From Streptomyces sp. NBC_00286 (lineage in GTDB: Bacteria; Actinomycetota; Actinomycetes; Streptomycetales; Streptomycetaceae): a stretch of 64,000 nucleotides of DNA. The stretch covers positions 4,340,001 through 4,404,000 of the forward strand of contig NZ_CP108054.1 in NCBI RefSeq assembly GCF_036173125.1, read 5' to 3'. The notes below the pieces were generated by a model. The model was not told where the DNA came from. It ran no database searches and saw only the letters and a program-made list of their open reading frames with translations. Positions 1,004-63,318 of this stretch are shown here, piece after piece (positions within the stretch are counted from its first letter, which is position 1; the number at the start of each line of letters is the position of its first letter). The translations under genes and the position numbers were made by a program.

Positions 1004-1131
1004 TTCGCTCCCCCACTCTCGGCTGCTCCCCCACTCTCGGCTTCGCTCGAGCGGGGGGACCCCCATGAGCGGGGGCCCCCATCGCGGCGGAGCCGCAAAT
1101 GTCACAGCCCCGCGCCCCTGAAGGGCGCGAT
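1004..1131 (-). repeat. modular intergenic repeat, copy 1 (CTCGAG type)
   Basis: In minus orientation it reads GGGGCTGTGACATTTG, the mini-hairpin GCGGC-TCC-GCCGC, alternating G/C runs, the CTCGAGCGAAGCC core, then two copies of the GAGAGTGGGGGAG module. Seven related copies occur in the window. This one lies between convergent 3' ends. Confidence 0.85.
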
Positions 1132-1146
1132 TCCGCACCGTGCTAT

Positions 1147-1380
1147 GGATGGCGCGCCCTGCGTGCGCGTTGCCCGCCGTTGGAGGTGCGTTTCGACGCC
1201 GCGGGTCCGCTGCGGCTTGTCGCGCAATTCCCCGCGCCCCTAAAGGGGCGCTGGACCGCGCCGCTGCTTCGGATGGCGCGCCCTGGGTGCGCCTTGCCCA
1301 GCGCTGGATGCGCGCTCGACACTGCGGGTGCGTCGTGGCTGGTCGCGCAGTTCCCCGCGCCCCTGAAGGGGTCTGCGGCC
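1147..1380. repeat. tandem duplication of about 124 bp with hairpin ends
   Basis: Two diverged units both begin GGATGGCGCGCCCT (1147 and 1271) and both end with a CCCCGCGCCCCT stem-loop; the hairpin at 1234-1251 is perfect. The same CGCAGTTCCCCGCGCCCC module recurs near 14280 and 19900, so the array is related to the wider repeat family. Confidence 0.6.
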
Positions 1381-1399
1381 CCCCTCAGGCGCGGCTTTC

Positions 1400-1951
1400 T
1401 CAGACCGCCTCGTACGCCAAGTCCTCGTACGCCGACTTGCCGGCGCAGTACGCCCCCGCGCCGCCCTCGAACGTCGCAGGAGCCGTCTCGCATGTTGTCG
1501 TGGTCGTGCTGTGGGGCGAACTGCGGTCCACCTCGCACCAGATGCGTTTGCCTGCGCCCTCTGGGCTCCAGCCCCAGCGGTCGGCCAGGCCGTCCACCAG
1601 GGCCAGGCCGCGGCCGCCTGTTTCGTCGTTGTCGACGCAGCGGGGGCGTGGTGGGCGGGCGCTGGTGTCGGCCACCTCCAGGCGGACTGTGGCGGGGGCC
1701 TGGCCCGCAGTGCCGTCCCCCGCACCCGCGTCGGGCGCCGTGCCCGGCAGGGACAGGCGCAGTACGGCTGGACTTCCGGTGTGGACCACGGCGTTGGTGA
1801 CCAGTTCGGAGACGAGGAGGATCAGCGTCTCGGCCAGTGGCTCATCGACTCTTATGGCCGAGCCGGCAATCCGCGAACGGACCCATCTCCGGGCTCGCCC
1901 CACCTCTGCGGGGTCGGGCCGGATCTCCAGCTGCACTTGAAGCACCTGCAC
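1400..1951 (-). CDS. ATP-binding regulatory protein (RsbW/SpoIIAB-like HATPase)
   Basis: A 183-residue protein with a single histidine-kinase-like ATPase fold of the anti-sigma/serine kinase type common in Streptomyces. The N box LLVSELVTNAVVHT is near residues 43-56, the G1-like VADTS near 92, and the G2-like GGRGLALVDGLADRWGW near 110-127. It lacks a dimerisation/His domain and any membrane segment, so it is not a conventional sensor kinase. Proteins of this type bind ATP and either phosphorylate STAS antagonists or sequester sigma factors. Its partner is not adjacent; a STAS protein lies 6 kb away at 8.2-8.5 kb, but linkage is unproven. Confidence 0.85.
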   Translation of the reverse strand: MQVLQVQLEIRPDPAEVGRARRWVRSRIAGSAIRVDEPLAETLILLVSELVTNAVVHTGSPAVLRLSLPGTAPDAGAGDGTAGQAPATVRLEVADTSARPPRPRCVDNDETGGRGLALVDGLADRWGWSPEGAGKRIWCEVDRSSPHSTTTTTCETAPATFEGGAGAYCAGKSAYEDLAYEAV

Positions 1952-2437
1952 CGTTCACACCATCCGAACCGGCGGACACATCGCCTCGTGACCGAGGGCC
2001 ACAATCATGGGCAGAACAGGGATCACGGACTGTGATTCCCTTGCGTGACAGCATGGTTGACGTACAGTCACCCCAACAAGCGCTTCGGGCATATTCCAGC
2101 GCGAAGGAGTATGCGTACGGCATACTGTGCGACGCTCGTCACGGGAAGTCGAACGGGCTGGACCGGGGCTTGATCCCGCCCTGCGAGGGCGGCGCATCGC
2201 CGGGTCCGGAGCCACCTCAAGGGCAACACCGGGATGGCTCGGCCTCAGAACCACTCGCATCCCACACAAGGTACCGGAGCTCACCGCTGACTCCAGGCCG
2301 TGACGAGTCACACCTCGGACACAACCCGATATCGACGCACGGTAATTCCGGTATGCCACATTCCGCGACATCCGTCCGTTTCGGGGTGCCACGATCGGCG
2401 ACAAAGGGCTCGCGCGGCGGGCGTTCAAGGGGCTCGC
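1952..2437. other. gene-free gap upstream of the HATPase gene
   Basis: This 486-bp stretch lies between the start of the HATPase gene and the 3' end of the acyl-CoA dehydrogenase gene, both on the minus strand. Open frames here have poor codon bias and no convincing start. An imperfect palindrome around 2055-2070 (GTTGACGTACAGTCAC) could belong to the HATPase promoter region. Nothing else is recognised. Confidence 0.5.
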
Positions 2438-3313
2438 CTACCGTGCCGCCGGGGACAGCAGATGCTCCGCGAGTGCCTCCTCGGCGTCCGCCGCGCCGTG
2501 GCCCCGCCTGGCCCGCACCCAGGCGCGTTTGAGATGAAGGTGCACGTCGGACTCCCATGTGAAGCCCATGCCGCCGTGCACCTGAAGGCAGTCGCGGGCG
2601 CCCCGTTCGGCAGCCTCGTCGGCGAGCAGTCCGGCCGCGGCGATGTCGAGCGGGTCGGCCGTGACGGCGGCCGCGTACACCGCGACACGGGCCACCTCCA
2701 CGCGCACCAGCATCTCCGCGCACAGGTGCTTGACCGCCTGGAAGGCCCCGATCGGTTGCCCGAACTGCTCGCGCGCCCGGGCGTGTTGCACGGCCGCTTC
2801 GCAGGTACGGGCTGCCGATCCGAGTTGCTCGGCGGCGGTGAGCAGGGCGGCAACGGGGTCGGCGGAGGCGCCGCGCGGGACGCGGTGGAGGGGTGTCAGC
2901 GGGTCCGCCGAGCGCATCGCGACCGCTCCCGTCACATCCCCACGTACGGTGTCGGCCTCGTCCAGCCACTCCACGAGGGTGCCGTCCACGGCTGCGACGA
3001 CACATTCGCCGGTGGCGGCTCCGGGAACCTCGCCGGCCGCCAGGTGGGTGGCCACCAGCGGGCCGGGGAGCAGGGCGCGGCCCGCTTCCTCGAAGGCCAG
3101 GACCGCCTCGGGGAGCCCGAGCCCGACACCGCCGTCCGCCTCGGGGAGCCGCAGCGCGAAGAAGCCCGCCTCGCCGAGTTCGCGCCACAGGGCGCGATCG
3201 AGGTTCGGGGCGTCCACGGCGGCCCGGAGCTGTTCGCGTCCGAAGCGGCGCGTGAGGAGTTCACGTACTCCTGCTTGCAACGCCCGCTGGTCCTCCGTGA
3301 GTTGGAAACGCAT
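2438..3313 (-). CDS. acyl-CoA dehydrogenase family protein (short, partner-type subunit)
   Basis: A 291-residue acyl-CoA dehydrogenase-fold protein, clearly shorter than the usual 380-400 residues. It begins MRFQLTEDQRALQAGVRELL and ends with the C-terminal helical domain containing LQVHGGMGFTWESDVHLHLKRA, a signature of partner subunits in actinobacterial heteromeric FadE enzymes. It lies 9 bp downstream of a full-length acyl-CoA dehydrogenase gene on the same strand, so the two probably form one alpha/beta enzyme using FAD. Such pairs desaturate acyl-CoAs with bulky, branched or ring-derived side chains. The substrate is unknown. Confidence 0.9.
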   Translation of the reverse strand: MRFQLTEDQRALQAGVRELLTRRFGREQLRAAVDAPNLDRALWRELGEAGFFALRLPEADGGVGLGLPEAVLAFEEAGRALLPGPLVATHLAAGEVPGAATGECVVAAVDGTLVEWLDEADTVRGDVTGAVAMRSADPLTPLHRVPRGASADPVAALLTAAEQLGSAARTCEAAVQHARAREQFGQPIGAFQAVKHLCAEMLVRVEVARVAVYAAAVTADPLDIAAAGLLADEAAERGARDCLQVHGGMGFTWESDVHLHLKRAWVRARRGHGAADAEEALAEHLLSPAAR

Positions 3314-4477: not shown

Positions 4478-4501
4478 GACGCGTCCGCTCGTCCTGTCCG
4501 G

Positions 4502-5695
4502 CTACTTGTCGAAGTCCAGGTCCAGCATGCGGATCGCGTTGCCGCGCATCAGCTTGTAGACCGTCTCGTCGTCGAGGCCCTTCACATGATCGAGGGCGAC
4601 CTCCTTGGTGTGCGGGAAGGTCGAGTCGACGTGCGGGTAGTCGGTCTCGAAGGTCGCGTTGTCGCGACCGACCACGTCCAGCGAGGCGACGCCGTGCTTG
4701 TCGCGGAAGAAGCAGCAGAAGATCTGCCGGTAGTAGTACGTCGACGGAGGCTCGGGGATCAGGTCGCGCACCCCGCCCCAGGCGCGGTGTTCCTCCCAGA
4801 CGTCGTCGGCGCGCTCCAGGGCGTACGGAATCCAGCCCATCTGGCCTTCGGAGTAGGCGAGCTTGAGCTGCGGGAACTTCACCAGGACGCCGCTGAACAG
4901 GAAGTCCATCATCGAGGCCATCGCGTTGTTGAAGCTGAGCGAGGCCTGGACCGCCGGGGGCGCGTCCGGGGAGGCGGCGGGCATCTGGGAGCTGGAGCCG
5001 ATGTGCATGTTGACGACCGTTCCGGTCTCCTGGCAGATCGCGAAGAACGGGTCCCAGTAGCCGGAGTGGATGGACGGCAGCCCCAGGTAGGTGGGGATCT
5101 CGGAGAAGGTCACAGCCTTGACGCCGCGCGCCGCGTTCCGCTTGATCTCGGCGACCGCGAGGTCGATGTCCCACAGGGGGATGATGCACAGCGGGATGAG
5201 CCGGCCGCCGCTGTCGCCGCACCACTCCTCGACCATGAAGTCGTTGTACGCGCGCACACAGGCCAGCGCCACTTCCTTGTCGTGCGCCTCGGCGAAGGTC
5301 TGCCCGCAGAAGCGCGGAAAGGTCGGGAAGCACAGGCTGGCCTCGACGTGGTTGGCCTCCATGTCCTTGAGGCGCTCGACCGGGTCCCAGCAGCCCGGCC
5401 GCATCTCCGCGCGCGTGATGCCCTCCAGCGTCATCTCGTCGCGGTCGAAGCCGACGGCGGCGATATTGCGCTTGTACGGGAACTTGAGGTCCTCGTAGAT
5501 CCACCAGTCGGTCGGCGGTCCGTCCGGGTCCATCGTGATCTGGTACTTGCCGCCCACGTACGCGAGTTCCCCGATGCCGGCGGTCAGCGGCTTGGGCCCG
5601 CGGTCCTGGTACTTCTTCGGCAGCCAGGTCTCGAAGAGGTGTGCGGGCTCGATGACGTGGTCGTCGACGCTGATGATCCGAGGCAGTTCGGTCAT
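4502..5695 (-). CDS. amidohydrolase family metal-dependent hydrolase
   Basis: A 397-residue amidohydrolase_2 family TIM-barrel protein. It starts MTELPRIISVDDHVIEPAHLF, where the DDHVIEP segment is the usual first metal-binding strand. VVNMHIGSSS and FETDYPHVDSTFP provide later His and Asp candidates. The ATG at 5693-5695 follows a good GGAGGGG ribosome binding site; the open frame continues upstream but without family similarity. Relatives are annotated as hydrolases or decarboxylases (ACMSD-like) and often sit with acyl-CoA dehydrogenases in actinobacterial degradation clusters. It is first in a probable three-gene minus-strand operon and diverges from an acyl-CoA ligase gene. Confidence 0.92.
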   Translation of the reverse strand: MTELPRIISVDDHVIEPAHLFETWLPKKYQDRGPKPLTAGIGELAYVGGKYQITMDPDGPPTDWWIYEDLKFPYKRNIAAVGFDRDEMTLEGITRAEMRPGCWDPVERLKDMEANHVEASLCFPTFPRFCGQTFAEAHDKEVALACVRAYNDFMVEEWCGDSGGRLIPLCIIPLWDIDLAVAEIKRNAARGVKAVTFSEIPTYLGLPSIHSGYWDPFFAICQETGTVVNMHIGSSSQMPAASPDAPPAVQASLSFNNAMASMMDFLFSGVLVKFPQLKLAYSEGQMGWIPYALERADDVWEEHRAWGGVRDLIPEPPSTYYYRQIFCCFFRDKHGVASLDVVGRDNATFETDYPHVDSTFPHTKEVALDHVKGLDDETVYKLMRGNAIRMLDLDFDK

Positions 5696-9578: not shown

Positions 9579-11032
9579 GCGACGCGGACCATTTCGGGGC
9601 GTACGACAGAGAAGAGAAGAACGACGCACAGGGAGAGCAGGGGGAGCAGGGGGAGCACGCGAAATCGGAGGAGGAGCACCACGGCCCTGTGGGTGCCCAG
9701 GGCAACGGGCCACCGGGCCGGGTCGGCGGGGACGGAACAGCCGACCGGGACGGCGGCGTTGGACCACCCGGCTGGGACAGCAGCGACGGACCGCAGGGGC
9801 CGGGCGACGCCAAGGGCCCCGGCAGCGGCCAAGAGGCCGGAGGCCCGCTGCCCATCCCCATGCCGCGTTCCTCCGTGGAGGACACCGGGCTGCCGCTGCC
9901 CGATCCGCCGCCGGCGCCGTTGCTGCTCGAGCACCGGGTGCTGCAGTCGCTGCTCGGCGCCTGGGCGCTGGCCGCGTGCTCGCCCGAGGAGACGGCAGCC
10001 GTGGAGGAGCACCTCGGCCTCTGCGGGGCCTGCGCTGACGAGGCGCTGCGGCTGCGCGAGGCCGTCGGGCTGCTGCACAAGCCGGAGAGCCTCGACCTGG
10101 ATCCGCGGCTGCGCTGCCAGGTCCTCGAGGGGGCTCTCGAGCGACGCCCGCCCCGTATCCCGGTGCCGGACTGGGCGGTCCCGTACGACGCGGAGGCCGC
10201 CCGGCTCGACGCGCTGCTCCAGGACTTCGGCGACGCCGAGTGGCACGCGCCCGTACGGCTGCACTGGTTCGAGGGCGACAAGCCCACGAGCCGGCGTACG
10301 ACCGTCGCCAAGGTCATCGCCCACCTGCTGGCCGTCGACGGCTTCGTCGCCGTCGCCCTCGGCCTCGACGACCCGCTCGGCGACATCACCGCTCCCGCGC
10401 AGACCCCGGCGGGCCGCACCGAGGCCTTCTGGCGCGCGGCGCACTTCCCGCACACCCGGTCCGTACGCGGACCGTGGCGCGAGCAGAGCCACAACCTCGT
10501 GCGTACGGCGTCGTTCGCGGGCGGAGGCTCCGGGGAACTGTCCGTGCCGTACGGCGACTTCGAGCTGTCGTTGCAGGACGCGATGCTGGACCGGGCCTTC
10601 GAGTGCTGGGTGCACGCCGGGGATATCGCGGACGCCGTGGACTATCCGTACGAACCGCCCGCCCCGCGGCAGCTGCACCGGATTCTCGAACTCGCCGCCC
10701 GCATGCTGCCCCGAGTGCTGGCCGCCCGCCGCCAGGCGGGGCTCGCCGGGCCCGGCAGCGCGCGGCATCTCGTGCCGGCCGGTACGCCGGGCCGCACCCT
10801 GCGCCTGGAGATCGAGGGCTCCGGTGGCGGCGAATGGCTCATCCCGCTCGACTCCCCCGGCGCGCTGGCGTCCGCCGACCTCGAAGTGGCCCATGTGGCG
10901 CTCGACGGCGTCGAGTTCTGCCGACTGGCGGCCGGTCATATCTCGCCCCTGGAGGCGGCGGCCGGGCAGAAGGGCGACCGGGAGGCGATCAGGGACGTAC
11001 TGTTCGCGGCGGCTTCAATGAGCCGGATGTAG
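9575..11032 (+). CDS. anti-sigma factor-like protein: zinc finger plus MDMPI domain
   Basis: A 485-residue protein made of three parts. Residues 1-115 are charged, Gly/Glu-rich low complexity. Residues about 125-165 form an anti-sigma zinc finger with the ZAS pattern HLGLCGAC (HxxxCxxC). Residues about 200-450 form a mycothiol-dependent maleylpyruvate isomerase-like (MDMPI) module including WHAPVRLHWFEGD, KVIAHLLAVDGF and CWVHAGDIADAVDYPY. No membrane segment is seen, so it should act in the cytoplasm. It overlaps the sigma gene by four bases and is very probably its regulator. The MDMPI domain may add thiol or small-molecule sensing (inference). Confidence 0.88.
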   Translation: MSDADHFGAYDREEKNDAQGEQGEQGEHAKSEEEHHGPVGAQGNGPPGRVGGDGTADRDGGVGPPGWDSSDGPQGPGDAKGPGSGQEAGGPLPIPMPRSSVEDTGLPLPDPPPAPLLLEHRVLQSLLGAWALAACSPEETAAVEEHLGLCGACADEALRLREAVGLLHKPESLDLDPRLRCQVLEGALERRPPRIPVPDWAVPYDAEAARLDALLQDFGDAEWHAPVRLHWFEGDKPTSRRTTVAKVIAHLLAVDGFVAVALGLDDPLGDITAPAQTPAGRTEAFWRAAHFPHTRSVRGPWREQSHNLVRTASFAGGGSGELSVPYGDFELSLQDAMLDRAFECWVHAGDIADAVDYPYEPPAPRQLHRILELAARMLPRVLAARRQAGLAGPGSARHLVPAGTPGRTLRLEIEGSGGGEWLIPLDSPGALASADLEVAHVALDGVEFCRLAAGHISPLEAAAGQKGDREAIRDVLFAAASMSRM

Positions 11033-11295
11033 CTGAGCCGGATGCAGGGTGCGTACGCCCACGCGCCAGGCCTCAGGGCGCTTCTGAAGCGTGCTGAGCC
11101 GACTTGCCGAAGTCCGGCGCGATACGGCGCCCCGTCAGGGGCGCGGGGCTGTGACATGTGCGGCTCCGCCGCGATGGGGGTCCCCCCGCTCTGGGGATCC
11201 CCCAGGCCCTTAAGGCACTGGGGGCGCAGCCGAGAGTGGGGGAGCGACCAGCGACAACGAACCCGCAGCTTCGAACCGCGCTCCCAGCGGAGCGC
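11033..11295. other. convergent gap with repeat copy 2
   Basis: No gene. It contains the modular repeat and flanking GC-rich sequence between the 3' ends of the anti-sigma-like gene and purU. Confidence 0.6.
11129..11270 (+). repeat. modular intergenic repeat, copy 2 (CTTAAG type)
   Basis: It starts with a CGCCCCGTCAGGGGCG hairpin, then GGGGCTGTGACATGTG, GCGGCTCCGCCGC, alternating G/C runs, the alternative core CAGGCCCTTAAGGCACTGGG and one GAGAGTGGGGGAG module. It lies between convergent 3' ends. Confidence 0.85.
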
Positions 11296-12189
11296 CTACG
11301 CGAAAACGACCGTGCGCCGTCCGTTCAGCAGGATCCGGCGCTCCGCGTGCCACTTGACCGCGCGGGCCAGCGCCTGGCACTCCACATCGCGACCTACGGC
11401 GACGAGTTGCTCCGGCGTGACCTCGTGGCCCACGCGCTCGACCTCCTGCTCGATGATCGGGCCCTCGTCCAGGTCGGCCGTCACATAGTGCGCGGTGGCG
11501 CCGATCAGCTTCACACCGCGCGCGTGCGCCTGGTGGTACGGCTTCGCGCCCTTGAAGCTCGGCAGGAAGGAGTGGTGGATGTTGATGATCCGGCCGCTCA
11601 ACTGCTTGCACAGGTCGTCGGAAAGCACCTGCATATAGCGGGCGAGGACGACAAGCTCGACCTTCTCCTCGCGCACGAGCTCCAACAGCCGCGCCTCGGC
11701 CTGCGCCTTCGTGTCCTTGGTGACTGGCGTGTGATGGAAGGGGATGTCGTACGAGGCGACGAGTTCGGCGAAGTCGGTGTGGTTGGACACCACGGCGGCG
11801 ATCTCGACGGGCAGCGCGCCGATCCGGGCGCGGAACAGCAGGTCGTTCAGACAGTGGCCGAACTTGCTGACCATGAGGACGACGCGCATCTTCTCCTCGG
11901 CGCGACCCAGCTGCCAGTCCATCTGGAAGGAGTCACCGATCGCGGCGAAGCTGGCCCGCAGCTTGTCCAGGCTGACCGGAGGCTCCGCGGAGAAGTGGAC
12001 CCGCATGAAGAACAGTCCCGTGTCGTGATCGCCGAACTGCTGGCTGTCCTCGATGTTGCACCCGGTCATGAAGAGGTAGCTCGACACGGCGTGCACGATC
12101 CCCTTCTTGTCCGGGCAGGAGAGGGTCAGCACGTACTGGTCGGCCTGGTAGGCGGCGGGCTCGGCCCCGCGCACGGACTGCTCGGTCAT
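11296..12189 (-). CDS. purU: formyltetrahydrofolate deformylase
   Basis: A 297-residue PurU enzyme that hydrolyses 10-formyl-THF to formate and THF, balancing one-carbon pools. Residues about 18-100 form the ACT domain (YVLTLSCPDKKGIVHAVSSYL). The C-terminal formyltransferase-fold domain carries MVSKFGHCLNDLL, IINIHHSFLPSFKGAKPYHQA and TAHYVTADLDEGPII with the Asn/His/Asp catalytic residues typical of the family. ATG at 12187-12189 (MTEQSVRG) is preferred over a 16-codon upstream extension; no strong ribosome binding site is obvious. Confidence 0.96.
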   Translation of the reverse strand: MTEQSVRGAEPAAYQADQYVLTLSCPDKKGIVHAVSSYLFMTGCNIEDSQQFGDHDTGLFFMRVHFSAEPPVSLDKLRASFAAIGDSFQMDWQLGRAEEKMRVVLMVSKFGHCLNDLLFRARIGALPVEIAAVVSNHTDFAELVASYDIPFHHTPVTKDTKAQAEARLLELVREEKVELVVLARYMQVLSDDLCKQLSGRIINIHHSFLPSFKGAKPYHQAHARGVKLIGATAHYVTADLDEGPIIEQEVERVGHEVTPEQLVAVGRDVECQALARAVKWHAERRILLNGRRTVVFA

Positions 12190-12316
12190 GCCTGCCAGGG
12201 TCCCATATCGGTACGACACGATGGGCACTCGTCCCACTTCACGGACGTACGGCCCAGGGGTGCGGAGATACGGCCGAAGGTGCGGGCGTATCCACGTACG
12301 TGCTGCGTACGTACGG

Positions 12317-12763
12317 TCAGGCGGACCGGGTCATGATCCGGAGGACCTCGAGTGTGCGCGGCGGTACGTCCGGGTCCTCCCCGTCGCTCGCCGCCATCCG
12401 CACATGCGCGTCCCGGGCGGCCCGTACAGCCTCCGGCCACGCCTGGTGGTCGAGATACGCGGAGACGGGCGCGTCCGGACCCACCTGGTGCATGATCCGC
12501 AGTACGCGCAGTACAGCGCTGTCGACGAGCGCCGCCTCCTGCGAGTCCCGGAAGATCGTGCCGACGTATTTCTCGGCGGACCAGTTGTCCAGCCAGGTGT
12601 CCTCGACGAGGCGGTACACGGCGTCGGTGACGTCGCCGTACCCGTCCACGCCCGCGAGCCAGACGTTCTGCTGGAAGCCGGGGTCGGAGAGCATGTGCAG
12701 CGCGGAGCGCACATTGCTGCGCCAGCGCCACCACGGCATGTCGTTGAGTGCCATGCCGCCCAT
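12317..12763 (-). CDS. conserved Streptomyces protein (SCO4402-like), function unknown
   Basis: A soluble protein of about 148 residues with a tryptophan-rich start (MGGMALNDMPWWRWRSNVRSALHML) and conserved blocks VYRLVEDTWLDNWSAEKYVGTIFRDSQEAALVD and LRIMHQVGPDAPVSAYLDH. No enzymatic motif, signal peptide or membrane segment is visible. The start is uncertain: candidates are the ATGs at 12763 and 12754 and a GTG at 12817, none with a strong ribosome binding site. I believe it is the conserved actinobacterial SCO4402-type protein, from memory. It sits upstream of purU on the same strand and divergent from a lipoprotein gene. Confidence 0.75.
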   Translation of the reverse strand: MGGMALNDMPWWRWRSNVRSALHMLSDPGFQQNVWLAGVDGYGDVTDAVYRLVEDTWLDNWSAEKYVGTIFRDSQEAALVDSAVLRVLRIMHQVGPDAPVSAYLDHQAWPEAVRAARDAHVRMAASDGEDPDVPPRTLEVLRIMTRSA

Positions 12764-12935
12764 GGTGGATGAGCGGCGGCCATGACGGGAAGACTTCTCC
12801 GAACCTTGCACGGTCACCGATCGTACGTTCCCGCCCGAAACCGTCCTCGTGGACCCCCGCTATTCACCTTCGCGTAACCGAATGTTGAAGCAAGATCACT
12901 CGGGCATTTGGAATGTGGCGGAATCGTGCGTGTCC

Positions 12936-14222
12936 ATGACCGGCAGGCGTAGCACCCCCCACCGTCTCAGCCCTCGACGCATCAAGGCCAGCATGCTGTC
13001 CGCGGGCGCCCTGGTGGCCTGTGCCTCCCTGGCCGCTGGATGCGGGGTGGTCTCCGGGGTCACGGGGGGCTCCGGAGGCGACACCGTCACCGTCATGACC
13101 ATGGCGCCGGAAAAGACCAAGGCGACGAACAAGCCCGGTATGCCCGCCATGGCGAAGGCCTATGCCCGCTGGATCAACAAGGGCGGCGGCATCAACGGCC
13201 GCAAGTTGAACGTGATCACCTGCAACGAGCAGAACGACTCCGTGCGCGCCGCCGAGTGCGCTCGGCGCGCGGTCAAGGAGGACGTCGCCGCGGTCGTGGG
13301 CTCGTACAGCCAGTACGGCCGTTCCCTCCTCTCCCCGCTGGAGGCGGCCGGCATCCCGTACATAGGCGGATACGGCCTCACCGACGACGAGTTCACCAGC
13401 CCGCTCTCCTATCCCGTCAACGGCGGCCAGCCCGCGCTGCTGGCCGGACTCGGCCGGGAGCTCGCCACGAACTGCGGCCCCGTCGCCCTCGTACGCCCCG
13501 ACACGATCGCCGGCGACGAACTGCCGGTACTGCTCGACTCCGGGCTCTCCGCCGAGAAGCACGCGGAGGCCGCCGATCTGCGGGCCGCCGACGACGCCAC
13601 GGAGTACTCGCGGCATGCCGAGCAGGCGATCGAGCGGGCCACCTCCGACCCCGTGGGCAAGAAGGGGTGCGTGGTGCCCGCGCTCGGCGACCGCACCAGC
13701 ACCTTCATGGACTCCTTCCGGCGCATCGCCGACGACTATCCGTCGGTGCGGACCGCGACCGTGCTCGGCAGCGTCGACCAGTCGGTGATCAACGCCACGG
13801 GCCGTACGTACGAGGGGTCGTACGTCACCGGCTGGTACCCCGCGTCGAGCGACTCGCGGTGGAAAGCGATGCGCGACGTGATCCAGAAGGAAGCCTTCGG
13901 CGACAACCGGATCGACGCCTCGGACGCGGGCGTGCAGACCACGTGGATCGCCTACGAGGTCCTGAAGAAGACCGTCGAGTCGCTGGGCGACGGCGAGGTG
14001 TCCGCCCGCACGGTGCGGCGCACGCTGGACGACGGCCTGAAGATCGAGACGGCCGGGCTGACGCCCACGCTGAGCTGGGCCTTCTCGGACCTGATCGCGG
14101 CGAGCGGCTTCCCCCGGTTGATCAACTCGAACGTGACCTTCCAGGTGGTGCGGGACGGGCAACTGGTGGCGGCTCGGAAGGGCTTCACTAACGTGTCCCG
14201 GATCCTCGAGAACGCCGGTTAG
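12936..14222 (+). CDS. ABC-type solute-binding lipoprotein (periplasmic-binding type 1)
   Basis: A 428-residue extracytoplasmic lipoprotein. The basic N-terminus and hydrophobic stretch end in the lipobox LAAGC, with the lipidated Cys at about residue 36. The mature protein resembles branched-chain amino acid/amide-type receptors: AKAYARWINKGGGINGRKLNVITC, AAVVGSYSQYG, GIPYIGGYGLTDDEF. ATG at 12936 is chosen because it gives a proper short lipoprotein signal; the frame is open further upstream. No permease or ATPase gene is adjacent, so it is an orphan receptor and the ligand is unknown. Confidence 0.88.
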   Translation: MTGRRSTPHRLSPRRIKASMLSAGALVACASLAAGCGVVSGVTGGSGGDTVTVMTMAPEKTKATNKPGMPAMAKAYARWINKGGGINGRKLNVITCNEQNDSVRAAECARRAVKEDVAAVVGSYSQYGRSLLSPLEAAGIPYIGGYGLTDDEFTSPLSYPVNGGQPALLAGLGRELATNCGPVALVRPDTIAGDELPVLLDSGLSAEKHAEAADLRAADDATEYSRHAEQAIERATSDPVGKKGCVVPALGDRTSTFMDSFRRIADDYPSVRTATVLGSVDQSVINATGRTYEGSYVTGWYPASSDSRWKAMRDVIQKEAFGDNRIDASDAGVQTTWIAYEVLKKTVESLGDGEVSARTVRRTLDDGLKIETAGLTPTLSWAFSDLIAASGFPRLINSNVTFQVVRDGQLVAARKGFTNVSRILENAG

Positions 14223-14567
14223 CTCCGCTGGTTGAGCGGGTGGGTTCGTTTTTGGTGCGGGTGCGTGGTGGTTGCTCACGCAGTTCCCCGCGCCCCTAAA
14301 GGGCGCGTCACTGGAGCCGCCAGCCACCAAGTGCCCGCACTTGCCCACTGCCCTGGCCCACCACGCACCTAAGGGGCGCGGGGCTGTGACATTAGCGGCT
14401 CCGCCGCGATGGGGGTCCCCCCGCTCATGGGGGTCCCCCCGCTCGAGCGAAGCCGAGAGTGGGGGAGGAGCCGAGAGTGGGGGAGCGACCAGCCACGACG
14501 GGCCTGCAGTCGCCCATGAAACCGAACCCACCACCCCCGTGGGCGCCCCGCGCCAGACCGGCGAAGG
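14223..14567. other. convergent gap with repeat copy 3
   Basis: No gene. It contains the CGCAGTTCCCCGCGCCCC hairpin module (about 14279-14308) and the full modular repeat copy between convergent 3' ends. Confidence 0.6.
14366..14502 (+). repeat. modular intergenic repeat, copy 3 (CTCGAG type)
   Basis: Order of modules: AAGGGGCGCGGGGCTGTGAC, GCGGCTCCGCCGC, two CGCTC-containing G/C-run modules, CTCGAGCGAAGC, two GAGAGTGGGGGAG modules, and the CGACCAGCCACGAC end. It lies between convergent genes. Confidence 0.87.
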
Positions 14568-17171
14568 TCAGAGCTGCGTGGGCTGGCGTTCCGTCAAGCC
14601 GTACGTCTGGGCGATGGCGTTCCACAGCGGAGCGGCCTTCGCCTTCTGGGTGGTTGCGGTGCCGGATTCGCGGTTGCCCGCCCGGGTTTGGGGCGTGGTG
14701 CGGGCCTTGCCCTTGGGGCAGCCCTTCTTGGCGGCGACCTGGTCGGCCCAGGCCGCGTAGTGGTTGTCCGCCGCGGCGGAGGCCTTCCAGGCGCTGTTGA
14801 GGGCGGCGGTCAGTTGGGCGTGGTTCGGCAGCTTGTCGACGGAGAGGCCCGCGAGACGGGTGACCAGTTCGTTGCGCTGAGTGGCGGCGTTACGCAGGTC
14901 GGTGGCGGCCTGACCGAGGTTGGTGCACGTCCGTACGTTGGATACGGCCCTGATCACCGCGTCACGGCTGTCGTTGCTGTCCGCCAGGAGCTTGTCGAGG
15001 GCCACGGCCTGTGCCTTGGCCGGGTCGGCGGAGGCGGACGGCGACTCCTCCGCGGTGGGGGCGGTGGCTGCCACGGTCTTGTTCTCGTCGCCGCCGTCGT
15101 CGCCTCCGCTGTCGCTGAGCATGGCGCCCGCGCCGATACCGAGCACGGCGATGCCGACGCCCACGGCGGCGATGAGGGGGATACGGCCCCGGCTCCTGCC
15201 GCCGTTGCCGTTGCCACGGCTGCTGTCCGCCGATCCGCGCTCGCGCCGGGCTGCGGCCCGTCCGCCGGGCGCCCCCGGCAGGTCGACCTGCGGCAACTGC
15301 TGCGTGGCGTCCGGACCGTCCGATGCCTCCCGGAAGAGGTTGTCGAACTCGGCCGGTGGCTGCCGGTCACCCGGCGCACCCGGCCGTATCCCGTACGCCG
15401 CGCCGCCCCCTCCGGGCTGCGCGGGAACCGGCGGGATGTACTGCGTGGCCTGGGCGTCCGGGTCGCCGTCGGCGGCGGGAGGCATGGGGCCGGCACCCGC
15501 CCCTGCGGCGGCAGCTCCTGCGGCGGGCATCGACCCCGGACCGCCCTGCCGAACCCGGCCGAGGAACCGCGTCGCCTCGGCCTCGGAACCCGCCGACGCC
15601 TCCGGCGGCAGAGCCCCCGGACCCACCGGAGGGATGTACTGGGTGGCCCCCTCATCACCGGGCGCCCCGGCCGGAACCGGCGGCAGGTACTGGGTGGCGC
15701 CTTCGTCAGCACCGGCTGCGGGCGGCAGGGGCGCCGAGTGCCTGCCCTGCGCTTGCGCCGGAAGCTCGGCGGGAGGAAGGGGCGTCGCCGCTTGACCGGC
15801 TGAGGTCTGCGAGGGGTCGTACGCGGCTGATGTCGGGGATGCTGCGGGCCCGGCGGGAGCCTGCTGAGCGGTGGAGCCGGCGGACCCCTGCGGTGCCGGA
15901 TGCTGAGCCGAGGGAAGCGGCGACGCCTGACCCGACGGTGGCTGGGAGGCGCCGTAGCCATCGGGCGCCTGCGAGGCGGCAGGCTCAGCAGGCCCTTGCG
16001 GGGCGCCGTGCCTGCCGGATCCGCGCGGCGCCGACTGCCCGGCGAAATCCGGCGAGGCTACGTAACTGCCCGGCGCCTGCGCCTCAGCCGGGCCACCTGG
16101 CATCTGCGAGGCCGGGTTCCCGGCCGGAGGCAGTGACGCCGCCTGGCCATGGGCAGCCTGCGGCGCGCCGTGCGCATCCGTCGTCTGCGAACCGGCGGGA
16201 CCAGTAGACGTCTGCGAAGCGCCATATCCGACCTGCGGCTGCTGCCCTGCAGAGCCACCCGACGCCTGCGCCCCAGCCGGGCCACCCGGCATCTGCCCCG
16301 CCAGGTTCTCCGCCGGAGGCAGCCGCGCATTCTGGCCATCGGCAGCCTGCGACATGCCGTACGCATCCGACGCCTGCGAACCGGCAGGGCCGGCAGCCGC
16401 CTGCGAATCGCCGTATCCGATCTGGGGCTGCTGCCCAACGGAGCCGCCCGGCATCTGCGGTGCCGGGTTCCCCGCCGGAGGCAATGGCGCCGCCTGGCCA
16501 TGGACAGCCTGCGGTGCCCCGAATCCGTCCGTCCGCTGCGGCGCCCCGTACCCCGCCGCCCCCTGCGGCGGCGAGGTCTGCCCCTCCGGCGGGAGCCCTC
16601 CCGCGTCAGCCGACTGCCCCACCTGGGGAGCCGATGCGTTGGCCGGAGGGTGCTGGTGGCCCCCAGCACCCGGCGCAGACGGGGCGGTGCCCCACTGGCG
16701 CAAGGCGTCGGCGTTCTGCGTCCCGTACTGCGGCGCCGAGGCGGAACCCTGCGTCCCGTACTGCGGCGCCGGGGCCGAGCCCTGCGCACCGTACTGCGAC
16801 GCCTGATCGTGCCCCTGGGCTCCGTACCCCGCCCCCTGCGCGGAGCCCTGCACCCCATACCCCGACCCCGCGCCCTGATCGCCGTCCCACCCAGACGTGG
16901 AGTCGGACAGCGCGCCCCACGACGGTGCGGAGGCCTGCCCGTTCTGTGCCGGGTCCGGCCAACCCTCGGCCTGGCCGCCGTGCTCCGGACCCGGCGGAGT
17001 CTGTGGCGGTCGTCCGGGGCCCCAGGGCTGGTCCCAGGACTGGCCGCCTGCCGGGGTCGTGTGGTCCGGTGCGGCGCCCGGCAGGAGGGGGGCGCTGCCG
17101 TCGGACGGCAGCACGATGCCTTCGCGCGCTGGTCGCGGCGAGGGCTCCTCGCCCTGTCCGTTCTGCGTCAC
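14568..17171 (-). CDS. large repeat-rich single-pass membrane protein with five ATQ/ATR-x-x-I/L motifs
   Basis: An 867-residue protein. Residues 1-480 are Gly/Pro/Gln/Ala-rich with degenerate repeats (YGASQ, LPPAGNPA, QMPGG). Between about 490 and 630 there are five short motifs: ATQYLPPV, ATQYIPPV, ATRFLGRV, ATQYIPPV and ATQQLPQV. One transmembrane helix follows a basic stretch near 660-690 (IPLIAAVGVGIAVLGIGAG). The C-terminal 170 residues are probably extracellular (LDKLLADSNDSRDAVIRAVSNVRTC) with two cysteines. GTG at 17171 follows a TAGGAG ribosome binding site. The Thr motifs look like Ser/Thr-kinase/FHA docking sites (inference). Function unknown. Confidence 0.85.
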   Translation of the reverse strand: MTQNGQGEEPSPRPAREGIVLPSDGSAPLLPGAAPDHTTPAGGQSWDQPWGPGRPPQTPPGPEHGGQAEGWPDPAQNGQASAPSWGALSDSTSGWDGDQGAGSGYGVQGSAQGAGYGAQGHDQASQYGAQGSAPAPQYGTQGSASAPQYGTQNADALRQWGTAPSAPGAGGHQHPPANASAPQVGQSADAGGLPPEGQTSPPQGAAGYGAPQRTDGFGAPQAVHGQAAPLPPAGNPAPQMPGGSVGQQPQIGYGDSQAAAGPAGSQASDAYGMSQAADGQNARLPPAENLAGQMPGGPAGAQASGGSAGQQPQVGYGASQTSTGPAGSQTTDAHGAPQAAHGQAASLPPAGNPASQMPGGPAEAQAPGSYVASPDFAGQSAPRGSGRHGAPQGPAEPAASQAPDGYGASQPPSGQASPLPSAQHPAPQGSAGSTAQQAPAGPAASPTSAAYDPSQTSAGQAATPLPPAELPAQAQGRHSAPLPPAAGADEGATQYLPPVPAGAPGDEGATQYIPPVGPGALPPEASAGSEAEATRFLGRVRQGGPGSMPAAGAAAAGAGAGPMPPAADGDPDAQATQYIPPVPAQPGGGGAAYGIRPGAPGDRQPPAEFDNLFREASDGPDATQQLPQVDLPGAPGGRAAARRERGSADSSRGNGNGGRSRGRIPLIAAVGVGIAVLGIGAGAMLSDSGGDDGGDENKTVAATAPTAEESPSASADPAKAQAVALDKLLADSNDSRDAVIRAVSNVRTCTNLGQAATDLRNAATQRNELVTRLAGLSVDKLPNHAQLTAALNSAWKASAAADNHYAAWADQVAAKKGCPKGKARTTPQTRAGNRESGTATTQKAKAAPLWNAIAQTYGLTERQPTQL

Positions 17172-19698: not shown

Positions 19699-19726
19699 GC
19701 AGTTCGTCATCTGCGGGCCGGATGGG

Positions 19727-19851
19727 GCTGGTCGCTCCCCCACTCTCGGATGCTCCCCCAGTGCCTTAAGGGCCTGGGGGGACCCCCAGAGCGGGGGGAC
19801 CCTCATCGCGGCGGAGCCGCAAATCGACACAGCCCCGCGCCTCCAAGGGGT
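19727..19851 (-). repeat. modular intergenic repeat, copy 4 (CTTAAG type)
   Basis: In minus orientation: GGGGCTGTGTCGATTTG, GCGGCTCCGCCGC, G/C runs, CAGGCCCTTAAGGCACTGGG and the GAGAGTGGGGGAG end. A CGCAGTTCCCCGCCCCT hairpin module follows at about 19898-19926. It lies between tandem plus-strand genes, directly 3' of the primase-like gene. Confidence 0.85.
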
Positions 19852-22386: not shown

Positions 22387-22519
22387 GCGCCCCGTAAGGG
22401 GCGCGGGGCTGTGTCAATTGCGGCTCCGCCGCGATGGGGTCCCCCCCCCGCTCTGGGGGTCCCCCCAGGCCCTTAAGGCACTGGGGGAGCATCCGAGAGT
22501 GGGGGAGCGACCAGCCACG
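22387..22519 (+). repeat. modular intergenic repeat, copy 5 (CTTAAG type)
   Basis: It starts with the CGCCCCGTAAGGGGCG hairpin, then GGGGCTGTGTCAATTG, GCGGCTCCGCCGC, long C and G runs, CAGGCCCTTAAGGCACTGGG, GAGAGTGGGGGAG and the CGACCAGCCACG end. It lies between convergent 3' ends. Confidence 0.87.
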
Positions 22520-22599
22520 GGCGGTCCGCAGCCGAAGGACGGCGCGGTTCAACGGCGCTCGCTTTCAGGGTGCCCCTAGCGGAACCCCATCGCGGAGCC

Positions 22600-42536: not shown

Positions 42537-42587
42537 GAAATTTTCCCAGCGGGGCGCTCCGCGGGAGGGGTGGTTCGAAGCTGCGGG

Positions 42588-42672
42588 TTCGTCGTGGCTG
42601 GTCGCCCGCGCGGCGGAGCCGCAAATTGATACAGCCCCGCGCCCCTTAAGGGGCCTGCGGCCCCTCGGGGCG
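42588..42672 (-). repeat. modular intergenic repeat, copy 6 (internally deleted)
   Basis: It keeps both ends, GGGGCTGTATCAATTTG with GCGGCTCCGCCGC and the CGACCAGCCACGACGA end, but lacks the G/C-run modules, the CTCGAG or CTTAAG core and the GAGAGTGGGGGAG modules. It lies between the 3' end of the EamA gene and the promoter of the Atu-like operon. Confidence 0.75.
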
Positions 42673-59890: not shown

Positions 59891-59953
59891 CGGGTGGCTC
59901 CGCCGGTTGGGCAGGTCGGAGAGCTCGGTGGGTTGCGGAGTTTTACGGCTGCG

Positions 59954-60094
59954 AGTGCGTCGTGGCTGGTCGCTCCCCCACTCTCGGCTCCTCCCCCACT
60001 CTCGGCTTCGCTCGAGCGGGGGGACCCCCATGAGCGGGGGGACCCCCATCGCGGCGGAGCCGCCAATGTCACAGCCCCGCGCCCCTAAGAGGCC
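59954..60094 (-). repeat. modular intergenic repeat, copy 7 (CTCGAG type)
   Basis: In minus orientation: GGGGCTGTGACATTGG, GCGGCTCCGCCGC, two G/C-run modules, CTCGAGCGAAGC, two GAGAGTGGGGGAG modules and CGACCAGCCACGACGC. It lies between the convergent TetR and beta-propeller genes. Confidence 0.87.
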
Positions 60095-61259: not shown

Positions 61260-61940
61260 ATGCTCAGGTTCATGCCCGTAGGCGACTCCCAGACCATCGG
61301 CAGCGCGGGCGAACACACATGGCGTTACCGGATGTGGCAGCACCTGCGCGCGACGTACGGCGGCCCGTTCCGCATCGTCGGCCCCCGCGAGACGCTCTTC
61401 GACAAGGCGACGGACAAGGCCGACTCGTACGAGTACGCCGACCCCGACTTCCCCCGTTCCCACCTGGCGGGCTGGGGCGAGGGCTGGCTCCACATGACGC
61501 CACTGATCGCGGATGCGATACGCACTGAGCGCGCGGACGTCCTGCTGATCTCGCTGGGCCTGATCGACCTGGGCTTCTATACGGACGCGGACCACACGGC
61601 GGCGAACGTACGGCTCTTTGTGTCCGAGGCCCGCTCGGCCAACCCCCGCGTGGCGATGGTCTTCCTCCCCGTGATCCCGAACGTGAGGGCCGACACGGAC
61701 ACCGCCTTCGCCACCGAGGTAGCCCGCTTCAACGAGCTGCTGGCGAAGACGGTCGCGGACCTGGACGAACCATCGTCCCCACTGCTGCTGGCCTCGCCCC
61801 CGGAGTCGTACGACCTCAGCCGCGACACCCACGACGGCACGCACCCGAACGCATCGGGCGAGCACAAAATCGCGGCGGCTTTCGCCGAAGCGATGTACCA
61901 GGCCTGGGACTTGGGCGAGTCCTACGACCTCCGTCCTTGA
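61260..61940 (+). CDS. SGNH/GDSL-type hydrolase family protein
   Basis: A 226-residue SGNH-fold protein. Block I is LRFMPVGDSQTIGSAG with the nucleophile Ser; block V is THDGTHPNASGEHKIAAA with Asp and His. In the block III position it reads ISLGLIDLGF, where the usual GxND Asn is not seen. No signal peptide is present. ATG at 61260 is used; GTG 61239 is a possible alternative. Activity (esterase or lipase) is uncertain because of the missing Asn. Confidence 0.85.
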   Translation: MLRFMPVGDSQTIGSAGEHTWRYRMWQHLRATYGGPFRIVGPRETLFDKATDKADSYEYADPDFPRSHLAGWGEGWLHMTPLIADAIRTERADVLLISLGLIDLGFYTDADHTAANVRLFVSEARSANPRVAMVFLPVIPNVRADTDTAFATEVARFNELLAKTVADLDEPSSPLLLASPPESYDLSRDTHDGTHPNASGEHKIAAAFAEAMYQAWDLGESYDLRP

Positions 61941-61962
61941 GGAGGTCGGTTCGTGCTCGGGA

Positions 61963-62898
61963 TCAGAACATCGTGTTGTCGTTGGCGGAGTTCTCCGGTA
62001 CGTCCTGGATCACGTCCCAGTGCTCGACGATCTTTCCGTGTCGCACGCGGAACAGGTCGATGATCGCCTGGCCCCGCTCCCCCGGTGTGTTCACGTAGTG
62101 GCTGTGGACCGCCACAAGGTCACCCTCGGCGACGACCCGCTTCGGGGACACCTTCAGCTGGGGGAACGCGTCGAAGTACGCGCCCAGGCCCGCCTTCACG
62201 CCATCCACGCCGTCGGCGATGTTCGGGTTGTGCTGGTGGTATTCAGGACCCACGTACTTGTCGACGGCGGACAGGTCCTTCTTGACCAGGAGCTGGTCGA
62301 CGTACGCCGTGACCAGCTTCTTGTTGTACGCGGTGAGCCAGCGCGGGCCCGGCTTGTTCGTACGGGGCCAACTCTCCGTGGAGAACATGTCGTTGCCGTT
62401 CACCGTGGTCGCCGGCACCTCCTGCGCCGTGTCCCAGTGCTCGGCGATCTTCCCGCCCTGGAAGCGGAAGATGTCGAAGACGGCGCTGCCGCGCGTACCC
62501 GGCGTCAGGACGACGTTGGAGTGCACGAGCACGAGGTCGCCCTCGGAGATGACCCGCTTGATGCCGTACTCGGCGTCCGGGAACTGCTGGCTGAGGGCGG
62601 TGCCGAGGTTCTTGAGGGCCTCGGAGCCGTCGGGAGCGAGCGGGTTGTGCTGGATGTAGTCGGGCCGGACGTAACGGTCGACGACCGACGTATCGCCTCG
62701 CTCGAACACGCCCTTGAGCACCTTGACGGCGACGGACTTCTGGTAGCCGAGGCGGGCGGAGTCGCCGTAGCCGACCTGGTGCACGGCGGCGACCGAAGCA
62801 GGAGCCGCGGCGGCGGGCACGACGGCCACGGCGGTGAGAGCTGCGGCGGCCATGAGCGCGGTGGCGAGGGTACGGCGGGCGGGTGCGGTGGTGGTCAT
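61963..62898 (-). CDS. exported protein with two SnoaL-like (NTF2-fold) domains
   Basis: A 311-residue secreted protein. The signal peptide (MTTTAPARRTLATALMAAAA, cleavage near AAAA) is followed by two tandem SnoaL-like domains: residues about 55-180 (VDRYVRPDYIQHNPLAPDGSEALKNLG, GKIAEHWDTAQEVP) and about 185-311 (VDKYVGPEYHQHNPNIADGVDGVKAGL, GKIVEHWDVIQDVPE). Both keep YxQHNP and the paired HWD. Such domains bind small hydrophobic molecules or act as isomerases. ATG at 62898 is used. An inverted-repeat operator lies 100 bp upstream. Confidence 0.9.
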   Translation of the reverse strand: MTTTAPARRTLATALMAAAALTAVAVVPAAAAPASVAAVHQVGYGDSARLGYQKSVAVKVLKGVFERGDTSVVDRYVRPDYIQHNPLAPDGSEALKNLGTALSQQFPDAEYGIKRVISEGDLVLVHSNVVLTPGTRGSAVFDIFRFQGGKIAEHWDTAQEVPATTVNGNDMFSTESWPRTNKPGPRWLTAYNKKLVTAYVDQLLVKKDLSAVDKYVGPEYHQHNPNIADGVDGVKAGLGAYFDAFPQLKVSPKRVVAEGDLVAVHSHYVNTPGERGQAIIDLFRVRHGKIVEHWDVIQDVPENSANDNTMF

Positions 62899-62997
62899 GG
62901 GGTGCTGATCTCCGGTCCTGTGGGGAGGAAGGCGGTAAGCATGACCTTCAGGGCCTCTAAGTATTGAAAGTTCAAGCTCACACGGGCCAAAGGAAAG

Positions 62998-63016
62998 CAC
63001 TAACCATCAGTTAGTG
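62998..63016. promoter_or_regulatory. TetR-like operator upstream of the SnoaL gene
   Basis: CACTAAC-CATCA-GTTAGTG is a perfect 7-bp inverted repeat with a five-base spacer, 100 bp upstream of the SnoaL-protein start. Its regulator is not encoded in the window. Confidence 0.65.
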
Positions 63017-63096
63017 TCAAGATCGGCGTCCCGCGCGAAGACCCGCCCAACCGGTGCAGCGTGCGCTGGGGGCCGCCCCGTCAGGGTGCGCCCGCC

Positions 63097-63318
63097 ACAG
63101 GGGCGCCCCGATAGGGGCGCGGGGCTGTATCAATTTGCGGCTCCGCCGCGATGGGGGTCCCCCGCTCATGGGGGTCCCCCCGCTCATGGGGGTCCCCCCG
63201 CTCGAGCGAAGCCGAGAGTGGGGGGAGGAGCCGAGAGTGGGGGAGGAGCCGAGAGTGGGGGAGGAGCCGAGAGTGGGGGAGGAGCCGAGAGTGGGGGAGC
63301 GACAAGCCACAACGAGCC
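63097..63318 (+). repeat. modular intergenic repeat, copy 8 (expanded)
   Basis: The largest copy: hairpin and GGGGCTGTATCAATTTG, GCGGCTCCGCCGC, three G/C-run modules with CGCTCATGGGGG, CTCGAGCGAAGC, then six GAGAGTGGGGG modules spaced 18-19 bp. It lies between the aldo/keto reductase 3' end and the SnoaL-gene promoter. Confidence 0.9.

What the first reader, a model, noticed from the sequence alone, without database searches (positions are those of the whole stretch)
1004..63318. A mobile-looking modular repeat family between genes, eight copies in 64 kb
Eight copies (about 1.0, 11.1, 14.4, 19.7, 22.4, 42.6, 60.0, 63.1 kb) share the same order of modules: GGGGCTGTGACA-type end, mini-hairpin GCGGCTCCGCCGC, alternating G and C runs, one of two cores (CTCGAGCGAAGC or CAGGCCCTTAAGGCACTG), GAGAGTGGGGGAG modules, and CGACCAGCCACGAC end. 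All lie immediately 3' of a gene, five of eight between convergent genes, in both orientations, and each can fold strongly. No ORF is inside. They may be terminators spread by copying, or non-autonomous elements.
Basis: partly seen in the sequence, partly recalled or inferred. Interest (0 to 1): 0.7.

Follow-up and report, generated by a model that had tools for sequence, protein, structure and literature searches.

The report
Stackable mobile hairpins in Streptomyces
The eight repeats in this Streptomyces window are stacks of small DNA hairpins, and one of these hairpins, which typically lengthens the DNA by 36 bases, has also landed in frame inside ordinary enzyme genes elsewhere in the genome, adding about 12 amino acids without breaking them.

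Summary
The eight copies are real and belong to a genome-wide family: 196 exact left-end matches in the own genome, none for the reversed pattern. They are stacks of units. A ~45-nt short repeat carries a ~30-nt hairpin (T); seven of the eight also carry a stack of ~42-nt palindromes (P1, sister P2), one nested in the apex of another. Stacks grow mostly in 36-nt steps. P1 also occurs without the other units. Of 134 own-genome P1 cores I examined the 100 listed: 38 lie outside T context, and 20 of those read in frame through ORFs (five of the 20 judged by eye). Seven in-gene cases were compared with uninterrupted relatives and all seven confirmed: FabH, UdgX, acyl-CoA dehydrogenase, response regulator, xanthine-dehydrogenase type and LigD-type polymerase gain 36 nt (12 aa), SucD gains 33 nt of P2. 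In two class samples the family was seen only in this genus. Closest analogue: Rickettsia palindromic elements. The mobilising enzyme is unknown. Terminator function is untested. 'Non-autonomous elements' is supported, 'terminators' is not.

The parts
984..1119 (-). copy 1, long form: T hairpin 1084-1113, P array 1009-1083 (P1 nested in P1)
   Evidence: the S. ureilyticus-like genome G377 has the intermediate form, without the P array, at the same place
11137..11268 (+). copy 2, long form: T hairpin 11143-11172, P array 11173-11243 (P2 nested in P1)
   Evidence: absent in the orthologous spacers of the four relatives aligned (L084-L087)
14372..14509 (+). copy 3, long form: T hairpin 14378-14407, P array 14408-14484 (P1 in P1); inverted partner, a short element, near 14255-14294
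   Evidence: S. flaveus has an inverted pair of short elements at this place, S. ureilyticus only a remnant
19711..19844 (-). copy 4, long form: T hairpin 19808-19838, P array 19736-19807 (P2 in P1); begins 12 nt after the stop of a Prim-Pol gene (19003-19698)
   Evidence: S. flaveus has the intermediate form without the P array; S. ureilyticus lacks it
22397..22531 (+). copy 5, long form: T hairpin 22403-22432, P array 22433-22506 (P2 in P1)
   Evidence: absent in S. ureilyticus and S. flaveus
42581..42646 (-). copy 6, intermediate form: T hairpin 42610-42640, no P unit
   Evidence: interior missing in G377, left end present
59949..60086 (-). copy 7, long form: T hairpin 60051-60080, P array 59974-60050 (P1 in P1)
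   Evidence: G377 has 71 bp where the window has 213 bp
63113..63323 (+). copy 8, long form: T hairpin 63119-63149, P array 63150-63298 of 149 nt (three left arms, five right arms)
   Evidence: not testable in G377, which also lacks the neighbouring gene
1199..1371 (-). two tandem short-type elements (about 123-bp period), without T and P
   Evidence: families D5/D12; short-element motif at 1345

Best explanation
The window copies are hierarchical nests of mini-palindromes. (1) A short repeat (AGGGGCGCGGGG-AACT-GCGCGACCAGCCACRACGnACCCGCAG) is scattered between genes. (2) In many copies AACT is replaced by hairpin T (GCGGGGCTGT-loop-GCGGCTCCGC). (3) In the long copies a 42-nt palindrome P1 (GATGGGGGTCCCCCCGCTCGAGCGAAGCCGAGAGTGGGGGAG) stands in place of the 5-6 nt after T, and further P1 or sister P2 units are nested in the apex of P1. 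P1/P2 is the mobile unit: it is copied to new sites, where it replaces about 5-6 nt, for a typical net gain of 36 nt (P1) or 33 nt (P2). Both are multiples of three and P1 has no stop codon in any of six frames, so it can settle inside genes as a ~12-residue peptide. Shown: the modules, the 36-nt ladder, in-frame insertion against empty orthologous sites, differences between close relatives. Inferred: gain rather than loss; that copying occurs through a single-stranded hairpin (at replication forks or by a DNA-strand enzyme acting in trans); that placement at gene 3' ends reflects tolerance rather than a selected terminator role.
For: P1 occurs independently of T and of the short repeat: G212 has 15 P1 arms and 1 T, while G103 has 46 T and no P1 arm, G222 32 and none. 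Empty sites in DNA: response regulator 48 nt between fixed anchors against 12 in G377; SucD 38 against 5 (G377 and G128); LigD-type 42 against 6 (both); xanthine-dehydrogenase type 93 against 57 in G377 and 60 in G128: net +36, +33, +36, +36 (+33 against G128). Proteins: FabH 355 against 343 aa, UdgX 228 against 216, acyl-CoA dehydrogenase 404 against 392. Pfam domains of the interrupted proteins are intact and over cut-off. Ladder: of 102 T-bearing elements, 34 have 4-6 nt after T and 35 have exactly 41 (21), 77 (9), 113 (3), 149 (1) or 185 (1) = 5+36k. Same-site transitions: copy 1 long in the window, intermediate in G377; copy 4 long in the window, intermediate in S. flaveus. Apex nesting is visible in copies 1-5, 7 and 8. 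Six open frames.
Against: No mobilising enzyme was found; the three IS200/IS605-type Y1 transposase genes have no such repeats within 1.5 kb. Gain or loss was not tested on a tree; G377 is a draft of about 530 contigs, in which repeats may be under-assembled. 31 of the 66 P-bearing elements are off the exact ladder: 5 half-steps (59, 95), 4 with P2 (71-74), 16 within 1-4 nt of a full rung, 6 others (56, 58, 72, 82, 126, 137). The exact number of replaced nt is clear only for LigD and SucD; flanks have diverged at the other two. Only 7 in-gene insertions were checked against relatives; 15 of the 20 own-genome P1 cases rest on codon scores and frame alone. An insertion shared by several species (FabH) shows that some copies are old and inherited. 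The 15-nt arm pattern also gave 6 reversed-control matches in 392 genomes, so genomes with one or two arm matches may be chance.
Confidence: 0.72

Rival explanations
1. The composites are bidirectional, T-tract-free (I-shaped) transcription terminators, kept at gene ends by selection and spread by recombination.
For: Location: 17 convergent, 34 tandem, 3 divergent, 1 in a gene, 1 at an edge, of 56; binomial P 4.8e-5 for so few divergent and 5e-4 for so many convergent of 54 against spacer length. Copies 2, 3 and 5 fold with z about -3. Structured transcript ends without U-tracts are reported in S. clavuligerus (PMC8269248, passages seen).
Against: Five copies are missing from orthologous gene ends of a close relative; no orientation bias; no T-tract signal; P1 itself sits inside coding sequence in frame. 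The length-based test is biased because the elements lengthen the spacers they sit in, my gene finder missed at least one gene, and a preference of stem-loops for convergent over divergent spacers is reported as general in bacteria (PMC1590033, passages seen).
Confidence: 0.3
2. No mobility: intergenic hairpins diversify by slippage and gene conversion in place, and the in-gene peptides are old insertions differentially lost.
For: Half-unit (18-nt) steps exist (59 and 95 nt); some in-gene insertions are shared by several species (FabH; acyl-CoA dehydrogenase); the copy-3 site has held a related element in S. flaveus.
Against: P1 sits in unrelated sequence contexts with no shared flank; the closest relatives carry uninterrupted genes; two records both named S. 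flaveus differ for the UdgX insertion (P0122 and P0128).
Confidence: 0.15
3. P1/P2 are minimal MITE-like elements of an IS200/IS605, REP-transposase (RAYT) or IS110-type enzyme present in only some Streptomyces.
For: Hairpin form, high copy number, insertion into apices of other palindromes; P1 lies at one identical site in what I read (recalled motif, no search) as a TnpB zinc-finger region in two species.
Against: No element flanks the three Y1 transposase genes of this genome; target bases are replaced rather than duplicated or left intact. IS110-type enzymes were not searched.
Confidence: 0.35

Closest known systems
Rickettsia palindromic elements (RPE)
   Same: Palindromic repeats inserted in frame in unrelated genes, adding a peptide (review PMC10969869, passages seen); also outside genes.
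   Different: RPEs are about 150 bp in that review; P1 is 42 nt (net 36). P1 nests in its own apex and in other palindromes. Different phylum (recalled); no sequence comparison with RPEs was run.
BOX / RUP / SPRITE elements of Streptococcus pneumoniae
   Same: Repeats that cluster and insert into one another (PMC10969869, passages); left unit, variable number of middle units, right unit (boxA-boxB-boxC, recalled).
   Different: Here the middle unit is an independent palindrome that also enters genes; no target-site duplication seen.
REP/BIME sequences with RAYT transposases
   Same: Many short extragenic palindromes downstream of genes.
   Different: No Y1 transposase linked to the repeats in this genome; in-gene in-frame copies; the GTAG tetranucleotide of REPs (recalled) is absent from the P1 consensus.
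I-shaped (U-less) terminators of GC-rich bacteria
   Same: GC-rich hairpins near gene ends without a U-tract.
   Different: Copies differ between close relatives, have no preferred orientation, and part of the same repeat lies in coding sequence.

Membership tests
Rickettsia palindromic elements | palindromic repeat able to fold into a hairpin | tested here: met
   P1 -19.9 kcal/mol, z -1.94; P2 -21.6 kcal/mol, z -1.05: hairpins, though not much better than shuffles
Rickettsia palindromic elements | inserted in frame in otherwise intact unrelated genes | tested here: met
   7 of 7 cases checked against uninterrupted relatives
Rickettsia palindromic elements | about 150 bp long, member of a known RPE sequence family | tested here: not met
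   42 nt (39 nt for P2 in SucD, my count); similarity to RPE families was not tested
MITE / insertion-sequence derivative | target-site duplication | tested here: not met
   No duplication in the four DNA alignments; 6 nt replaced at LigD and about 5-6 at SucD, boundaries unclear at the other two
MITE / insertion-sequence derivative | autonomous partner with the same ends | not tested
   Only Y1_Tnp (PF01797) was searched, in the own genome
REP/RAYT | repeats flanking a REP-type Y1 transposase | tested here: not met
   3 PF01797 genes in the own genome, none with these repeats within 1.5 kb
Canonical intrinsic terminator | hairpin followed by a T-tract | tested here: not met
   2 terminator-like sites in 10500-23500 against 3.2 in shuffles; one overlaps the right edge of copy 2, the other lies in none of copies 2-5; copies 1, 6, 7, 8 not scanned
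I-shaped terminator | transcript 3' ends at the hairpin | not testable with these tools

The most novel reading that the evidence does not exclude
P1/P2 is a currently active mobile DNA hairpin with a dedicated, undescribed insertion mechanism: it replaces 5-6 target nt with a ~42-nt hairpin so that the net gain is 36 nt (33 for P2), prefers other hairpin apices and particular loops (three acyl-CoA dehydrogenase-type genes hit in the same loop), and by keeping all six frames open it works as a peptide-tag generator inside core-metabolism genes across Streptomyces.
Probability: 0.3. Interest if true: 0.85.

Novelty: new variant of a known kind. Interest (0 to 1): 0.72.

Why it matters
It turns 'intergenic repeats' of Streptomyces into a layered mobile family with one member that rewrites proteins. 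Core genes (sucD, fabH and others) carry extra peptides that annotators would take for family variation. The regular 36-nt step and the replaced target bases make the unknown mobilisation mechanism open to test in easily grown laboratory Streptomyces. The copies could also disturb draft assemblies and seed rearrangements (inference).

Tried and rejected
Rfam at gathering threshold matched none of the window repeats (whole window) nor four further 20-kb loci. No match of copy 7 in 50,697 phage records; the left part of copy 7 matched three plasmid records in part (64-66% of the query), all Streptomyces, so a phage or plasmid vehicle is not indicated. REP-type transposase: three Y1_Tnp genes found, no repeats beside them. 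Terminator scan of copies 2-5: nothing beyond chance. Literature: searches by topic or by sequence letters. The letter searches gave one unrelated paper and none; two searches gave none; in the other listings no title or abstract start that I saw names these repeats. I opened five papers and saw passages only: PMC8269248, PMC1590033, PMC10969869, PMC2635572, PMC3765725. The library is open-licence PMC only, so absence in print is not shown. Considered and dropped: that copy 4 lies between divergent genes (my gene finder missed the Prim-Pol gene); that the hit 854318, first counted as coding, is one (it lies in a variant T context). Planned but not done: an RNA covariance model, a structure prediction of an inserted loop, a search for a recombinase that tracks copy number.
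Full report
Setting. The window is positions 4,340,001-4,404,000 of a one-contig 9.85-Mb genome, 70% G+C. The six named loci that encode a relative of one window protein are all Streptomyces. The closest, S. ureilyticus (L084), appears to be the same contig as in genome G377 (same length and position). G128 appears to be S. umbrinus and G212 S. albiflavescens, because protein records of those names come from contigs of the same length.

Observation. The eight copies are there. The left end recurs 196 times in the genome, with no match for the reversed pattern; eight in 64 kb is a local excess over a mean of about 1.3 (my arithmetic; the window was chosen because they were seen). In the genus, 105 of 246 sampled genomes have the left end, the own genome far ahead of the next ones (81, 79, 68). 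In a sample of the class, 10 of 296 genomes have it, all of this genus (10 of 28 genus members, 0 of 268 others).

Anatomy. Elements printed base by base (50 of them) and flank profiles (49, 55 and 60 sequences) show homology from AGGGGCGCGGGG to CCCGCAG. Three layers are visible. The short element has GGGGAACTGCGCGACC (283 exact GGGGAACTGCGCGA, reversed control 0). The intermediate element has T in place of AACT; T folds as a hairpin of about ten or more pairs with a 5-7-nt loop. The long element has a P array after T. P1 is GATGGGGGTCCCCCCGCTCGAGCGAAGCCGAGAGTGGGGGAG; P2 has the apex AGGCCCTTAAGGCACT. Copies 1, 3 and 7 are P1 nested in the apex of P1; copies 2, 4 and 5 are P2 nested in P1; copy 8 has further units; copy 6 has none.

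Ladder. One search measured the distance from T to the right end in 102 elements. The set is not random: most stretches were fetched because they hold P1. It is 4-6 nt in 34 and 9 nt in two. Of the other 66, 35 sit exactly at 41, 77, 113, 149 or 185 nt, which is 5+36k; five are half-steps (59, 95); four P2-bearing ones are at 71-74; 16 lie within 1-4 nt of a full rung; six are elsewhere (56, 58, 72, 82, 126, 137). I read this as insertion of whole units plus occasional slippage of one 18-nt arm and small indels.

Orthologous spacers. Against S. ureilyticus/G377 the unaligned stretches at copies 2, 3, 4 and 5 shrink from 267, 219, 240 and 261 bp to 47, 0, 16 and 113 bp (flanks 91-96% identical), and at copy 7 from 213 to 71 bp (flanks 88 and 92%). 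Copy 6 lacks its interior. Copy 1 is the intermediate form. Copy 8 could not be tested because the next gene is missing too. S. flaveus has no copy 2 or 5, the intermediate form at copy 4, and an inverted pair of short elements at copy 3. So positions can be old while the P units inside differ.

Independence of P1. The 15-nt arm CCGAGAGTGGGGGAG is in 164 of 392 genus genomes; the reversed pattern gave 6 matches in 6 genomes, so low counts may be chance. Counts of T and P1 do not go together: G103 46 T and 0 P1 arms, G222 32 and 0, G212 1 and 15; G350 has 138 arms, more than the own genome's 128. A longer P1 core was in 18 of 394 class genomes, all in the genus (18 of 40 genus members, 0 of 354 others, reversed controls 0). 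In the other genomes sampled P1 lies in quite different sequence, including genes (17 stretches printed).

In-frame insertions. In the own genome 134 P1 cores are within two mismatches, reversed control 0. The tool listed 100, which I examined; 34 were not seen. 54 are in T context; I moved eight more there by eye (variant T or right end), leaving 38 free copies. Of these, 15 pass a codon-score test on both flanks in one open frame, nine lie in another palindrome family (GCTGTGGGCAATCGTTCCGCAGGGC...GGTGGGCACAGC), three in a third repeat context, and 11 in other places; five of the 11 read in frame through a gene near an end or with a weak flank (1804022, 3444266, 4612292, 7771032, 8258276; judged by eye). 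That makes 20 of 38. Pfam scans of 15 of the own-genome P1-bearing ORFs and of SucD found domains over cut-off in all but one (8258276, no family): response regulator, molybdopterin-type xanthine dehydrogenase, LigD Prim-Pol, solute-binding protein, zinc alcohol dehydrogenase, enoyl-CoA hydratase, MMPL, two copper-type P-ATPases, Cu-oxidase_4, three acyl-CoA dehydrogenases, DUF2000, succinyl-CoA ligase (UdgX). Peptides are mostly MGVPPLERSREWG, WGSPRSSEAESGG (or GGTSRSS...) and, antisense, LPHSRLRSSGGTP, so several frames and both strands are used. P1 has no stop in six frames; P2 has a stop in two of six.

Verification. Seven in-gene cases were compared with uninterrupted relatives and all seven confirmed. 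DNA: response regulator (3444265), xanthine-dehydrogenase type (2091768), LigD type (1804021) and P2 in SucD (3765340), against G377 and G128; the G128 response regulator is only 71% identical and may be a paralogue. Anchor distances are 48 against 12, 93 against 57 (60 in G128), 42 against 6 and 38 against 5. At LigD 42 nt stand where both relatives have 6 (GGnCCG). Protein: FabH of G212, 355 aa against 343, 13 sequences chosen from 120 listed; UdgX, 228 against 216, ten chosen from 120, where one S. flaveus record has the insertion and another lacks it; acyl-CoA dehydrogenase, 404 against 392, 13 chosen from 120, where one further record has the same peptide and S. umbrinus and S. phaeochromogenes carry longer, changed versions at the same loop. 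Three acyl-CoA dehydrogenase-type genes of the own genome carry P1 in the same loop.

Where the composites lie. In 864 kb (two 400-kb segments and the window), 56 T-bearing left ends: 34 in tandem, 17 in convergent, 3 in divergent spacers, 1 in a predicted gene, 1 at an edge; spacer lengths are 59%, 13.5% and 27%. Copy 4 is one of the three 'divergent' and is really tandem. The tests (P 4.8e-5 and 5e-4) are biased by the elements' own length. There is no orientation bias relative to the upstream gene in 34 tandem spacers (16 against 18). The pattern fits both a terminator role and simple tolerance after gene ends, and a convergent-over-divergent bias of stem-loops is general in bacteria (PMC1590033, passages). 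I favour tolerance because copies are not kept at orthologous gene ends.

How it may work. Shown: unit differences, in-frame compatibility, replacement of about 6 target nt at LigD and SucD, nesting in hairpin apices. Inferred: a hairpin-forming single strand is copied or pasted at exposed single-stranded targets such as hairpin loops at replication forks, with a few matching bases at the ends, probably with an enzyme in trans. None was identified; the three IS200/IS605-like genes are not linked to the repeats.

Known relatives. Rickettsia palindromic elements are the nearest known kind: palindromic repeats in frame in unrelated genes (PMC10969869, passages). P1 is about a quarter of their length, nests in itself, and belongs to another phylum, so it works like an RPE but is not shown to be one. 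BOX and related pneumococcal elements that insert in one another are the nearest for the composites (same source). The searches named under Tried and rejected showed no description of these repeats, within an open-licence library and mostly from listings only.

Limits. Gene calls come from a simple codon-score finder. G377 is a draft in which repeats may assemble poorly. Gain against loss was not tested on a tree. Fifteen of the 20 own-genome in-gene P1 cases have no comparison with a relative.

Noticed in passing
window 31414-31632 (+): Actinobacteria sRNA Ms_IGR-5 (RF02471), 81 bits, the only Rfam match of the window at gathering threshold.
   Followed up: no
L053 about 4480-4650, L050 about 3040-3190, L066 about 16500-16650: A ~130-nt conserved, self-complementary core (GGGCCGGTGCGTCAGCCCGTCGCC...GCTAAGCGACGG...GACGCACCGGCCC) flanked by inverted short elements, seen in 6 of 7 regions printed; no Rfam match in the four loci scanned.
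   Followed up: partly
own genome 3181262 and L183 about 243: P1 sits at the same point of a sequence that I read as a TnpB zinc-finger region (recalled motif) in two Streptomyces genomes.
   Followed up: no
own genome 791407, 8305547, 8894337: Three acyl-CoA dehydrogenase-type genes carry P1 in the same loop, suggesting a site preference or conversion between paralogues.
   Followed up: partly
own genome 1503798, 3182846, 3764452, 3934227, 5955015, 6149482, 8500268, 9280057, 9394998: A further palindrome family (GCTGTGGGCAATCGTTCCGCAGGGC...GGTGGGCACAGC) with P1 in its middle, nine copies among the 38 free P1 sites.
   Followed up: no
window 46219-46683 and 16069-16608: Tandem 93-bp repeats and 162/189-bp repeats, the latter inside an 867-aa ORF without Pfam match.
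   Followed up: no
window 61927-63470: A 1.5-kb stretch with a SnoaL-like gene and copy 8 is missing from the orthologous place of G377.
   Followed up: no
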